A DNA stretch of 64,000 nt. It comes from Okeania sp. SIO2C9 (GTDB lineage Bacteria > Cyanobacteriota > Cyanobacteriia > Cyanobacteriales > Microcoleaceae). Below the pieces are notes generated by a model that was not told the DNA's origin, did not search any database, and was given only the letters and a program-made list of their open reading frames with translations. Below are positions 26,808 through 61,468 of this stretch, in pieces. Made by a program: the position numbers and the translations under genes. The number at the start of each line of letters is the position of its first letter. The first letter of the stretch is position 1. The stretch lies in the NCBI RefSeq assembly GCF_010672455.1, contig NZ_JAAHGO010000019.1, forward strand, positions 18,640 to 82,639. Direction: 5' to 3'.

Positions 26808-26934
26808 GCCCTTGCGAGTCCCCCGACAGTCACGCAACTGGCGTGGTGTTGTAGTGCCTCCTTTCCTAGGTCATGCTGCGCAAACGGAGGAGCTACACTA
26901 ATACGAGCGTCAGGGTAACACCTGAGCTCCGTTT
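26808..26934. repeat. Cluster of nested small dispersed repeats
   Basis: GC-rich island in AT-rich DNA. GCGCCCTTGCGAGT...CAGTCACGC resembles the 51-bp insert in tnpB (30142-30193). It is followed by GCCTCC...GGAGGAGCT, a split copy of the palindromic repeat seen at 29943-29968. That copy is interrupted by the 21-bp repeat at 26864-26884. Confidence 0.65.
26864..26884 (-). repeat. 21-bp small dispersed repeat, copy 1
   Basis: Minus-strand reading TTTGCGCAGCATGAC then CTAGGA. Identical to copies at 29780-29800 and 38570-38590, and 4 bases different from 52967-52987. Here it sits inside another small palindromic repeat. Confidence 0.9.
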
Positions 26935-29662: not shown

Positions 29663-30988
29663 CTAAGCTGGCACTATAGTACGGGCTTCTCGTTTCCCTG
29701 CCCTGCCATTGCATCGGGATCCACGAGCTTTAAGGACGGAATGCCCTACCGCCCTATTTTTTATATTTATCGCTGCATTTCCTAGGTCATGCTGCGCAAA
29801 CAAGTCGCAGTCTATTACAGTACCGCAATGCGGACAAGAATGAGTTAGTATGTTTAATTCTTTGGGGACTTTTTCACCACAATTTGAGCAATCTTGGCTG
29901 ATATTTTTGGGGTTTACTGCTATAGTTTTCTGTCCAGCATTTGCCTCCTCCGGAGGAGCTGCGCTAACGGCTTTGACAGTTAAAATAGACAGGAATTGAC
30001 TCCATCCAGCATCGTTAATTGATTTACTCAAACTAGTCTTTGCTAACCCTTTTATGTTTAAGTTTTCGTGGACAATAACATCCGCTTTTGATAACAATTC
30101 ATTGGCTGTTTTGAAATGAAAATCTTTACGTTTATCGGCAACTGCTTGGTGCGCGTTCCCTTGCGACTGTCGTCGTCGCGGGGTCGCATCCGCCTTTTTA
30201 TGTTGTTTTGCTACAGCTATAAGAGCTTTTAACCACCTTTTGCTACCTTCTTTCTTTCGAGATAAACGTTTCTGTAAAGTCTTTAATCGCTTCTGAGATT
30301 TTCTATAGTATTGAGGTATGGGGACAGATTCTCCAACACTAGTTACTAAGAATTGCTTTAGCCCCATCTCAATTCCCAGAGTGTTTTTTAATGTAGGTTC
30401 CACTTCAGTTGTTAAAGCTGGAACTGATTTTTCTTCTAGGGATAAAGTCACATAATAACCATCAGCTTTACGACTAATCGTCACTGTTTTAATTATAAAC
30501 CCTTCTGGTATTGGACGATGCTGAATTAACTTTACTTTTCCAATTTTGGGTAAGTTTATTTTATTTCTTTCAATGCAGTCAAGTTTGATTTGAGGATAAG
30601 TAAAACTGCGATAACGTCCAATTCCATTAAACCTTGGTTTTCCTAATTTATGCCCATTTTTGTCTGTTTTCAACCATCTATCAAAGGCAAGTTTTACCTG
30701 TTTTATGCAATCCTGTAAAACTTGAGAATGAATTAGCTTGTATTCAGAAAACTTATCTTTGGTATTGACCAAATCTCGTTTTTGAGAGTAATAATTTGGA
30801 TTATCTCTTAGTTGAGGAATGGGCATGACCAAGGGGCAGGCATTAACTGGACAAAGGTTTTCTGACCACCATGAGAACCGCTCCCCTAACCTATAGTTGT
30901 ACTGCCGACGTAACAATTCTAACCACAATTCTATGGTGGCTATTTGTTCTTTGTTCGGCCTTAATTTATATTGGTAGGCAGTGCGCAT
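29663..30988 (-). CDS. tnpB: TnpB (IS200/IS605/IS1341-type RNA-guided nuclease), with three in-frame repeat insertions
   Basis: 441 residues, uninterrupted. N-terminal YQYKLRPNKEQIATIELWL, RuvC-I region LGIEMGLKQFLVTS (with Glu where the usual pattern is Asp), RuvC-II VIVHENLNIKGL, zinc ribbon CSNCGEKVP...SCPHCG and RuvC-III DCDL...NAAINIKNRA. Three stretches look inserted in frame: 17 residues after KHKK, about 9 (VSAAPPEEA) before NAGQKTIAVNP, and 7 (FAQHDLG) directly between the RuvC-III Asp and NAAINI. All three match small DNA repeats seen elsewhere in the window. No tnpA is adjacent. Activity is doubtful given the D-to-E change and the RuvC-III insertion. Confidence 0.88.
   Translation of the reverse strand: MRTAYQYKLRPNKEQIATIELWLELLRRQYNYRLGERFSWWSENLCPVNACPLVMPIPQLRDNPNYYSQKRDLVNTKDKFSEYKLIHSQVLQDCIKQVKLAFDRWLKTDKNGHKLGKPRFNGIGRYRSFTYPQIKLDCIERNKINLPKIGKVKLIQHRPIPEGFIIKTVTISRKADGYYVTLSLEEKSVPALTTEVEPTLKNTLGIEMGLKQFLVTSVGESVPIPQYYRKSQKRLKTLQKRLSRKKEGSKRWLKALIAVAKQHKKADATPRRRQSQGNAHQAVADKRKDFHFKTANELLSKADVIVHENLNIKGLAKTSLSKSINDAGWSQFLSILTVKAVSAAPPEEANAGQKTIAVNPKNISQDCSNCGEKVPKELNILTHSCPHCGTVIDCDLFAQHDLGNAAINIKNRAVGHSVLKARGSRCNGRAGKREARTIVPA
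29780..29800 (-). repeat. 21-bp small dispersed repeat, copy 2, in frame in tnpB
   Basis: Same 21 bases as at 26864-26884 and 38570-38590. It encodes FAQHDLG within the RuvC-III region. Removing it restores the usual DxDxNAAINI-like spacing. Confidence 0.9.
29943..29968 (-). repeat. 26-bp palindromic small repeat in frame in tnpB
   Basis: GTTAGCGCAGCTCC followed by GGAGGAGGC on the minus strand, with a TCCTCCGGAGGA palindromic core. It encodes the extra VSAAPPEEA. Relatives at 34654-34679, at 4160-4191 and 8386-8417 (type B R1 tails), and, split, at 26856-26905. Confidence 0.75.
30142..30193 (-). repeat. About 51-bp GC-rich repeat in frame in tnpB
   Basis: It encodes a 17-residue Arg/Gln-rich insert (DATPRRRQSQGNAHQA region) between KHKK and VADKRKDFHFK. 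Similar DNA (GACCCCGCGTCGGCATCAGA, CGCAAGGGAATGCTGACCA) occurs at 39198-39240 and in part at 26808-26845. Confidence 0.65.
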
Positions 30989-35993: not shown

Positions 35994-36060
35994 ATCAAAA
36001 TACGCGCAACTCCGCCTTTTAAGGCCAAATATTTTTGGAGGTTTGCTCAAGTCCGCGTTA
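35994..36060 (-). repeat. Dispersed repeat R2, inverted
   Basis: CTCCGCCTTTTAAGGC, AAATATTTTTGGAG, TTTGCTCAA and GTCCGCGTTAC: reverse of the R2 pattern at 20760 and 50495. It directly joins the R1 copy to its right. Confidence 0.6.
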
Positions 36061-38512: not shown

Positions 38513-38746
38513 TTTTACCGAAAAATTGTGGGTATGCGCCTCCCCTTTTAAGGGGATAATAAGCGGTCGTTTGCGCAGCATGACCTAGGATGGGATGGCG
38601 CCATTCGGAGCGGCTCTGATAAGAGCGGGTCTCCTCGCCATATCCAATCGACTCCTGTGAAGAAAAATTTTCATGAATTTGTCAATCCTCTTCTTTTCAA
38701 GGAGAGGTAATTATTCATTATTCATTATTCATTATTAATTGTTGAA
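38513..38746 (+). repeat. Dispersed repeat R1, full copy containing the 21-bp repeat
   Basis: TTTTACCGAAAAATTGTGGG, CTCCCCTTTTAAGGGG, AAGCGGTCG, then the 21-bp insert, TGGGATGGCG, CCATATCCAATCGACTCC, GTCAATCCTCTTC, AAGGAGAGGTAATTATTC and ATTAATTGTTGAA. Nearly identical to 54774-55008 apart from the small insert after GCGGTCG. Confidence 0.9.
38570..38590 (+). repeat. 21-bp small dispersed repeat, copy 3, inside R1
   Basis: TTTGCGCAGCATGAC then CTAGGA, placed between GCGGTCG and TGGGATGG. The R1 copy at 36059-36262 shows the site without it. Confidence 0.9.
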
Positions 38747-52957: not shown

Positions 52958-53154
52958 GTAAGCATTTCCTGCGGAATGCTGCGCAAACAGCTTTATTAAT
53001 TTTAGTGGACAATTTAAGCTTGCTGTTCTTGTGCTTCAATTCTTTGTTTAAAAATGTCGTAGAAGTTAAGCAAATGCTTGCTTCATTTATTAAAAAGCTG
53101 AATGCGAGCGCATTCCGCACCGAAGAGCTGACCGCGAGCTAGCTGAATGCTTAC
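52958..53154 (+). mobile_element. MITE family 2 (197 bp) with 8-bp target duplication
   Basis: Ends GTAAGCATT and AATGCTTAC, with ATATCAAC on both sides (52950-52957 and 53155-53162), inserted in an R3 repeat. The left inverted repeat is itself interrupted by a 21-bp small repeat. The right one contains a further GC-rich insert (GAGCGCATTCCGCACC region). No open frame. Confidence 0.82.
52967..52987 (-). repeat. 21-bp small dispersed repeat, variant copy 4
   Basis: Minus strand TTTGCGCAGCATTCC then GCAGGA. The ends match copies 1-3 and the middle differs by 4 bases. It interrupts the left terminal repeat of MITE family 2 (GTAAGCATT | CAGCTTT). Confidence 0.8.
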
Positions 53155-60465: not shown

Positions 60466-61468
60466 CTCCCGTTATAATCTGCGATTTAACGGGAGGGGAA
60501 TTGCCGAGCTGTAAATTAAAAGGGTTTCGATTGCTGTTCAAATGCAGCACTAAAAAATAGTCATTAATCATTGTTTAAAAAATTCTATTGGTACAATAGT
60601 TTTTGGTTGGAATCAAGGTCAGAAAAATCAAACAGTTTCTGTACCTAAATTTTATAGAAAATCACAATCTAATTTAGCAAGAAAGCAAAAAAAAGTATCT
60701 AGAAAAGAAATTGGATCAAACAACTGGAGGGCAGCACAAAATAGAATAGCTAGATTACATCAACATATTGCTAGACAAAGAGAAGATTTCCATGTGCATT
60801 ACTGCTCATAAATTAGTTAAAGAATATGACTTAATTGCTGTGGAAGACCTAAACATTAGAGATTTAGCAAAAAATACTAAACTATCAAAATCAATTTATG
60901 ATGCAGGTAAATAATGAATAATGAATAATTAATAATTAATAATTAATAATTAATAATATCAAAGTCAGTTGGCTTCACAGTAGTATAGTTTTGTCAATCG
61001 TCATACAGTCGGTAAGAGCAAAAGGCCATTTACCCCTACAATATAGACTCTTATCTTTAAAGATTAAATGACACCGATACTACCGGATTTGATATGATTC
61101 TTTAATTATTAATTATTAACTATTAATTATTAATTATTTAAGGTGTTCATGTAAGTAGGGGCGAATGGCCATTCGCCCCTACATCCTCACAATACATCAC
61201 ATGCATTGTAGTAATTGTGGTCAAAAAGTATCTAAAACTTTATCAGTTAGAATTAATTCTTGCCCTAAATGTCAAACAGTTTTGGATAGGGACGAGAATG
61301 CAGCAATTAACATTTTAAATAAAGCATTAAACGAGGTGGGTATCATCTTGTCTGCTTGTGGAGGCTATGAGATTAATCAGCCTGTGTTCGCGCAGCGTTG
61401 CGCCAGCACTCGCAAGAAACTTCTTTGTTTGAGAAACTCCCGTTATAATCGCTCTTATTTAACGGGAG
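60466..61468 (+). mobile_element. Decayed IS605-type element bounded by the same hairpin on both ends
   Basis: CTCCCGTTATAATC...TAACGGGAG occurs at 60466-60495 and again at 61437-61468, each a 9-bp perfect stem. Between them lie tnpB fragments and AT-rich repeat debris (60907-61150). The stretch 60159-60465 before it has no gene. Confidence 0.7.
60552..61430 (+). pseudogene. Chimeric tnpB relic
   Basis: The first fragment INHCLKNSIGTIVFGWNQGQ is near-identical in type to the TnpB at 43279-44578. It switches directly to FYRKSQSNLARKQKKVSRKE, NNWRAAQNRIARLHQHIARQ and LIAVEDLNIRDLAKNT, which belong to the other TnpB subgroup (as at 29663). After 280 bases of noncoding repeats the zinc ribbon and RuvC-III follow: HCSNCGQKVSKTLSVRINSC, DRDENAAINILNKAL. 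The C-terminal part lies within an open frame of 61165-61485 but is only a fragment. Confidence 0.75.

What the first reader, a model, noticed from the sequence alone, without database searches (positions are those of the whole stretch)
29780..29800. A 21-bp mobile-like repeat that enters genes in frame
The same 21 bases occur in tnpB (29780), inside an R1 repeat (38570), inside another small palindromic repeat (26864), and as a variant inside a MITE end (52967). In two cases the unoccupied site is visible nearby (R1 at 36059; the MITE's other end), so these are real insertions of exactly 21 bases. The length divisible by three keeps reading frames open (FAQHDLG in tnpB). This resembles the small dispersed repeats of 21-27 bp reported in Nostoc, whose mobility mechanism is unknown, but the sequence here may be a new family.
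Basis: partly seen in the sequence, partly recalled or inferred. Interest (0 to 1): 0.82.

Follow-up and report, generated by a model that had tools for sequence, protein, structure and literature searches.

The report
21-bp jumping double-minihairpin repeat in Okeania
Hundreds of copies of a 21-base DNA sequence are scattered through this marine cyanobacterium, inserted cleanly, as a rule between a T and a C; they are of the known kind of very small mobile repeats whose mover is still unknown, and share a two-hairpin layout with a repeat of other cyanobacteria.

Summary
The 21-mer is exact at 26864, 29780 and 38570; a 4-mismatch variant lies at 52967. The genome (Okeania, by its relatives) holds 284 copies of this form and 559 of the variant (up to 3 mismatches; reversed control 0). 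Insertions are precise: 21 bp, or 22-23 when a loop or stem is longer, at T^C, mostly TT^CR, without target duplication. Unoccupied counterparts exist for three of the four window copies; the R1 pair is not clean. New here: the unit reads 3-3-3-1-3-3-3-2, two tandem mini-hairpins with TNC loops (GNA on the other strand) followed by AA^C, with compensating stem changes. Elements nest in TTC loops of other elements. The same layout occurs in a HIP1-embedded repeat that matches the published SDR5 insertion point. This is a new, highly amplified member of the small dispersed repeat (SDR) kind. Most likely it moves as a folded single strand joined by an unidentified enzyme; that step is inferred.

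The parts
29780..29800 (+). SDR copy, AGGTC form (TCCTAGGTCATGCTGCGCAAA), inside tnpB in antisense orientation; adds FAQHDLG
   Evidence: empty paralogues
26864..26884 (+). SDR copy, AGGTC form, in the TT^C loop of a CCTCC(TTC)GGAGG host repeat
   Evidence: empty host in Okeania sp. SIO2B3 (L171)
38570..38590 (-). SDR copy, AGGTC form, at the usual R1 site (CCATCCCA^CGACCGC)
52967..52987 (+). SDR copy, GCGGA form (TCCTGCGGAATGCTGCGCAAA), in one end of a MITE-like repeat; both mini-hairpins can pair
53145..53146 (-). unoccupied TT^C site in the other end of the same MITE-like repeat
   Evidence: sequence printed
38539..38659 (.). R1 repeat copy that carries the 38570 element (limits approximate, set by eye)
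29944..29967 (+). second two-hairpin element in the same tnpB: CCTCC(tcc)GGAGG AGC(tgc)GCT AA
29663..30988 (-). tnpB (OrfB_IS605) that carries both insertions; limits worked out from the ORF, from its first ATG
   Evidence: Pfam PF01385 1.9e-13, PF07282 2e-9, PF12323 1.8e-7
61389..61408 (-). further two-hairpin element TGC(tggc)GCA A CGC(tgc)GCG, followed by AAC

Best explanation
A very small mobile element of the SDR kind. Shown: a discrete 21-bp unit (22 or 23 bp when a loop or stem is longer) was inserted many times in the same register, as a rule at T^C (mostly TT^CR), with no target duplication at the clean sites; what is conserved is a layout, S1(3) TNC S1'(3) 1 nt S2(3) TNC S2'(3) AA, with stems that change while staying paired. 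The T before the site can lengthen hairpin 1 (T-TCC..GGA-A). Inferred: the strand with GNA/GNNA loops, a class reported as exceptionally stable DNA mini-hairpins, is the form recognised, and an unidentified enzyme acting in trans joins it into T^C of another molecule, loops of existing copies included. Not shown: the enzyme, the strand, and whether the copy step passes through DNA or RNA. The AGGTC form keeps length, hairpin 2, tail and target while hairpin 1 is broken, so hairpin 1 is not strictly needed.
For: Filled/empty pairs: 82 of 227 elements had a spanning match; net insert 21 bp in 49, 22 in 23, 23 in 6, 20 in 3, 24 in 1. Between species: window copy 26864, L151:4000 empty in G387, and a conserved gene filled in two species and empty by exactly 21 bp in a third. 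Target in 91 distinct contexts: -2 T 77, -1 T 89, +2 A63 G24 C4 T0; +1 is C in 90 of 95 when not built into the search. Layout: sites chosen only by two TNC loops, AA and C: 84 of 417 have both stems fully paired, against 0 of 235 in one shuffle. Tandem TNC hairpins with an AA tail 125, shuffles 3, 0, 0; the 15 other loop classes 0-15; other tails 0-7. Loop 1 left free: TNC in 99 of 119 three-base loops, T..C in 26 of 34 four-base loops; loop 2 left free: TNC in 107 of 122. Copies nested at TT^C in loops. GNA/GNNA stability: PMC4686876, passages.
Against: Predicted fold energies are no better than shuffles, as DNA or RNA (z from -0.5 to 1.4), though such models may lack a GNA-loop bonus. Without the AA tail, ANT and TNA loop classes outnumber TNC (229 and 247 against 110), probably from AT-rich repeats, so the loop control rests on the tail. 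The AGGTC form, hairpin 1 broken, is itself abundant and in 10 clusters of surroundings. Neither Y1 transposase nor reverse-transcriptase number tracks SDR number once genome size is allowed for (partial rank correlations -0.03 and 0.20, 25 genomes). No orientation bias along four contigs. No general preference for hairpin-loop targets: 7 of 91 against 4.2 expected. The gene insertion does not have C at +1 (G and T in the two filled copies, T in the empty one). At R1 the filled copies nearly always have A at -1 where empties have T, which the rule does not explain.
Confidence: 0.45

Rival explanations
1. The unit spreads through an RNA copy: a transcript carrying the element is reverse-transcribed and the 21-nt piece is joined at T^C, the route favoured for some SDRs in the 2008 paper (recalled; that paper is not held).
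For: The genome has 35 reverse-transcriptase matches. A two-hairpin structure would also suit an RNA.
Against: RT number does not track SDR number: 80 matches and 0 SDR in G452, 11 and 323 in G386. Stem mismatches show no wobble asymmetry between strands, 47 GT-type against 52 AC-type, but that count is blurred by 22-bp forms read out of register.
Confidence: 0.27
2. A Y1 (HUH) transposase of the IS200/IS605 or RAYT type moves it in trans as single-stranded DNA, as RAYTs are proposed to move REPINs. This is a special case of the best explanation with the enzyme named.
For: No target duplication and a short target beside the left end fit this enzyme class (recalled). The genome has 20 Y1_Tnp matches. 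REPIN precedent, PMC3116915, passages.
Against: G445 has 26 Y1 matches and 0 SDR; the correlation vanishes after genome size. No fixed GTAG-type motif: that position is a free loop base. Both flanks of the site are constrained, not only the left.
Confidence: 0.2
3. No dedicated mover: replication slippage or template switching copies short hairpin DNA to sites with chance similarity.
For: Elements are tiny and could form hairpins, and several sit near heptamer-type tandem repeats.
Against: The unit has constant ends in unrelated contexts, 191 of the 343 elements found at up to 3 mismatches have none, and the TT^C target shares almost nothing with the unit.
Confidence: 0.1
4. Copies are explained only by duplication of longer repeats such as R1, MITEs and tnpB.
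For: R1 carries many: 16 of 40 exact AGGTC copies; 308 elements collapse to 91 contexts.
Against: 91 contexts, clean empty sites in paralogues and in other species, and nested insertions.
Confidence: 0.03

Closest known systems
SDR5 of Nostoc and relatives (Elhai et al. 2008, recalled; passage in Elhai 2015, PMC4390886)
   Same: The HIP1-embedded repeat GCGAT^[GCC TNC GGC G GGC TNC GCC TA]^CGC has the same 21-bp 3-3-3-1-3-3-3-2 layout, free TNC loop bases and insertion at T^C. The passage says SDR5 inserts between nucleotides 3 and 4 of HIP1, which is this site on the other strand.
   Different: Stems differ, the Okeania target is mostly TT^CR and not HIP1, the tail is AA, and copy number is 323-609 per genome of the genus against at most 17 among the 100 genomes. 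That this repeat is SDR5 is inferred from the insertion point and a recalled sequence; the 2008 paper is not held.
SDR4 and SDR6 (Elhai et al. 2008, abstract recalled)
   Same: Recalled: 21-27 nt, shared predicted secondary structure, compensatory changes, nested copies of SDR4.
   Different: Sequences could not be compared. The Okeania pattern at up to 1 mismatch is in 3 of 386 genomes of the phylum sample, one being the window's own.
REPIN/RAYT elements (PMC3116915, passages)
   Same: Short, palindromic, non-autonomous, many copies.
   Different: REPINs are several times longer (recalled); no fixed tetranucleotide here, no link to Y1 genes found.
Rickettsia palindromic elements (recalled)
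   Same: Short repeats that enter genes in frame.
   Different: About 100-150 bp (recalled); this element avoids genes.

Membership tests
SDR (small dispersed repeats) | Dispersed repeat of 21-27 nt in high copy (recalled) | tested here: met
   21, 22, 23 bp in 243, 54, 11 of 308; 284 and 559 copies
SDR (small dispersed repeats) | Precise insertion with visible empty sites | tested here: met
   with an untypical right flank
SDR (small dispersed repeats) | Copies nested in copies (recalled for SDR1 and SDR4) | tested here: met
SDR (small dispersed repeats) | Sequence identical to one of the eight named families | not testable with these tools
   2008 paper not held; the listings showed no source for the sequences
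SDR (small dispersed repeats) | Confined to one coherent cyanobacterial subgroup (recalled; taken as the heterocyst formers) | tested here: not met
   High copy in Okeania and three genomes of sister genera, present in Hydrocoleum and Microcoleaceae records, non-heterocystous by recall. A recalled survey result rather than a defining feature
SDR5 | Sits in HIP1 between nt 3 and 4 | tested here: not met
   Main family targets TT^CR. Met by the separate HIP1 repeat in 15 of 100 genomes, own genome 0 for that pattern; one own element of another stem type sits in GCGATT..CGC (C285:152957)
SDR4-6 structural group | Common predicted secondary structure | tested here: inconclusive
   Two-hairpin layout shown here and shared with the HIP1 repeat; the published drawing could not be seen
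REPIN/RAYT | Conserved GTAG-type tetranucleotide (recalled) and RAYT association | tested here: not met
   Loop base free; Y1 number does not track SDR number
IS200/IS605-derived mini-element | Ends shared with a full-length element | not tested
   Lone left and right halves numbered 16 and 13 in 2.05 Mb and showed no common cargo by eye; IS ends were not compared systematically

The most novel reading that the evidence does not exclude
One mobile architecture lies behind several cyanobacterial SDRs: two back-to-back DNA mini-hairpins with GNA or GNNA loops, about 21 bp in all, moved as a folded single strand into T^C. The substrate is a shape, not a sequence, so stems drift while pairing is kept, and each copy with a TTC loop is a fresh target. 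It would be the smallest mobile DNA with a defined structural code, with Okeania as the amplified case.
Probability: 0.3. Interest if true: 0.85.

Novelty: new member of a known kind. Interest (0 to 1): 0.62.

Why it matters
SDRs have been called perhaps the smallest known mobile elements, and their mover was not known in 2008 (both recalled). An amplified family with hundreds of copies, clean empty sites between species, a T^C rule and a layout shared with the HIP1 repeat gives a concrete substrate and target to test, and points at single-stranded DNA mini-hairpins as the form recognised.

Tried and rejected
Insertion into loops of longer hairpins as a general target rule: not supported, 7 of 91 contexts with stems of 5 or more against 4.2 expected. 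It fits only nesting in TTC loops of sister elements.

Strand or orientation bias: none in four contigs (C24 23 and 23, C1 8 and 11, C285 9 and 13, C223 13 and 12). Wobble asymmetry as a test of RNA strand: inconclusive. Folding energy: no support. A longer master element with the same ends: none seen by eye among lone halves. Y1 and RT number as a pointer to the mover: no signal after genome size. Rfam at 26000-54000 of the window: no match at the gathering scores.

Layout elsewhere: samples G376 and G382 (100 kb each, thought Nostocaceae-like) gave 3 and 1 two-hairpin hits against 0-2 in shuffles, so nothing above chance there, though one hit is in HIP1; G320 (200 kb) gave 3 against 1-5 without the tail and 3 against 0 with it. 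Hydrocoleum and MO_207 loci gave 24 and 7, but they had been fetched because they hold the element.

Dropped before counts: 131 of the 439 anchors (loop 2 not three bases starting with T, or hairpin 1 not matching the expression); contexts merged at up to 8 of 28 mismatches. In one search poor spanning matches (nested or indel-rich) stayed in the tally of 82. One search tested 159 of 165 elements from relatives; 55 had a spanning match and several are not clean; no tally was made. In one search, 6 of 14 own elements had a match in the relatives: 3 filled, 2 empty (one clean), 1 partial; of 9 elements of the relatives 2 had a match, both filled. The search for nested copies asked for a T before and a C after the inserted unit, and some of its hits share flanks, so they are neither an unbiased test of the target nor all independent.

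Full report
What is in the window. The finding's 21-mer TCCTAGGTCATGCTGCGCAAA is exact at 26864-26884 and 29780-29800 on the + strand and 38570-38590 on the - strand; 52967-52987 carries a variant with four differences, TCCTGCGGAATGCTGCGCAAA. In the window's own genome (10.88 Mb, 317 contigs) there are 284 matches to the first form and 559 to the second at up to three mismatches, with none for the reversed patterns. So the finding's form is one branch of a larger family.

Host. All 5 genomes held of the window's genus have 323-609 matches at up to two mismatches. Of 25 genomes of the family 11 have a match; three outside the genus have 217, 235 and 244, while a third member of the genus of two of these has 8. 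In a phylum sample 3 of 386 match at one mismatch or less, the window's own genome included.

The insertions. I fetched 1.99 Mb of the genome, 2.05 Mb with the window, and looked there and in 60 further loci for places where an element's two flanks occur joined. Of 227 elements 82 had such a match; the net insert is 21 bp in 49, 22 in 23, 23 in 6, 20 in 3 and 24 in 1. Where the pair is clean the junction is unambiguous: NT^C becomes NT[TCC..AAA]C, with no duplication. Window copy 26864 is absent from a near-identical stretch of Okeania sp. SIO2B3. The tnpB site is unoccupied in two paralogues and occupied in another. A copy at L151:4000 is cleanly absent at the matching place of SIO2B3, while L089:8855 and 11237 are shared with SIO1I7. 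A gene with weak similarity to glycosyltransferase family 28 (below Pfam's cut-off), which has one long match in each of the five genomes among those listed, carries a unit in the window's genome and in SIO1I7 and lacks exactly 21 bp in a third species, G386. That insertion is in frame; its two copies have diverged, and the base after the unit is G or T, not C, so it departs from the usual target.

Target. From 308 elements, 91 contexts remain after merging like flanks: T at -1 in 89, T at -2 in 77, and A 63, G 24, C 4, T 0 at +2. The +1 C was part of that search; left free, it is C in 90 of 95 elements of the main form, and -1 is T in 76 of these 95, 18 of the 19 with A following CC as in R1. 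Hairpin-loop targets are not generally preferred.

Layout. The main form reads TCC TNC GGA A TGC TNC GCA AA: two tandem mini-hairpins with 3-base loops. Among anchors TGC-loop-GCAAAC, loop 2 is TNC in 352 of 393 three-base cases. Choosing sites only by two TNC loops, the AA tail and C, without asking for pairing, gives 417 sites of which 84 have both stems fully paired; one shuffle gives 235 and 0. The 84 have stems TCC/TGC 63, CCC/AGC 11, CCC/TGC 6, CCC/CGC 2, TCC/TAC 1, TGC/GGC 1. With stem 1 of four or more pairs and an AA tail there are 125 in 2.05 Mb against 3, 0, 0 in shuffles; the other 15 loop classes give 0-15 and other tails 0-7. The tail matters to that control: without it, three-base TNC gives 110 (shuffles 2 and 3) but ANT 229 and TNA 247, probably from AT-rich repeats. 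Loop 1 left free gives 191 sites (shuffles 27 and 32), with TNC in 99 of 119 three-base and T..C in 26 of 34 four-base loops; loop 2 left free gives 176 (shuffles 38 and 41), with TNC in 107 of 122. Longer relatives such as CCTCC(TCC)GGAGG AGC(TGC)GCT AA follow the same plan. The opposite strand has GNA or GNNA loops closed by C-G. Such loops are reported as exceptionally stable DNA mini-hairpins (PMC4686876, passages seen; GNA loops also in PMC6479982, passages seen). Against this, standard folding energies are no better than shuffles, and the finding's AGGTC form has lost hairpin 1.

Nesting. Elements sit inside others at TT^C in a loop. A listing of lone left halves, which did not ask for this, shows four such cases; a search that did ask for T before and C after finds five in loop 2, two in loop 1 of the main form and one in a CCTCC host, some sharing flanks. 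Window copy 26864 is one more.

Link to SDR5. A repeat recalled from Nostoc, GCGAT^[GNC TNC GNC G GGC TNC GCC NA]^CGC, is in 15 of 100 genomes of the order and not in the window's genome; of its 60 copies 58 keep the free stem pair complementary, GCC/GGC or GTC/GAC. It has the same 21-bp layout. Elhai 2015 (PMC4390886, passage seen) states that SDR5 inserts between nucleotides 3 and 4 of HIP1, which is GCGAT^CGC on the other strand. The 2008 SDR paper is not held; what I say of it is recalled.

Genes. Copies avoid genes: 16 of 181 are in ORFs of at least 120 aa, 107 expected from coverage; 14 of the 16 are 21 bp and four share one ORF. Read from the sequence, the main form is open in all six frames unless a loop base is A, which would help the survivors.

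Mover. Y1_Tnp and RVT_1 matches were counted in the same 25 genomes. Raw rank correlations with SDR number are 0.50 and 0.48, that of genome size 0.62, and the partial values are -0.03 and 0.20. Neither family is pointed out.

Unexplained. The R1 site CCATCC..GACCGCT occurs 96 times in the sample: 27 are CTC and a few others empty, and most of the rest hold one of many SDR-like types at the same position, nearly always after CA where the empties have CT. The finding's R1 copy belongs here.

Verdict. A genuine, highly amplified mobile repeat of the SDR kind, not matched to a named family as far as could be tested, with a layout and a T^C rule that tie it to SDR5. How it moves is inferred, not shown.

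Noticed in passing
own genome, R1 site (2.05 Mb sample); window 38570: One R1 position is occupied by many different SDR-like types, nearly always after CA where empty copies have CT: hot spot, exchange in place, or both.
   Followed up: partly
L125:19529-19788 (G000:C285:99529-99788): A 148-aa open frame that resembles tnpB by eye (no Pfam match) carries four separate 21-bp insertions, all in frame.
   Followed up: partly
L068:11940-11960 (G000:C24:151940-151960): A Uma2-type nuclease gene carries an in-frame SDR copy.
   Followed up: no
own genome sample: Heptamer-type tandem repeats and other short repeats are very abundant and often flank the SDRs.
   Followed up: no
G320, G450, G453: Three genomes of one sister genus have 8, 217 and 244 copies: recent gain or loss.
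   Followed up: no
L228 and L219: Single matches on a Deltaproteobacteria MAG contig and a Nostoc sp. JL34 contig; misbinning or transfer not checked.
   Followed up: no
own genome sample: Two-hairpin sites with GNA loops on the tail strand are the second commonest loop class (15), and elements whose second half reads TGC GGA GC exist.
   Followed up: no
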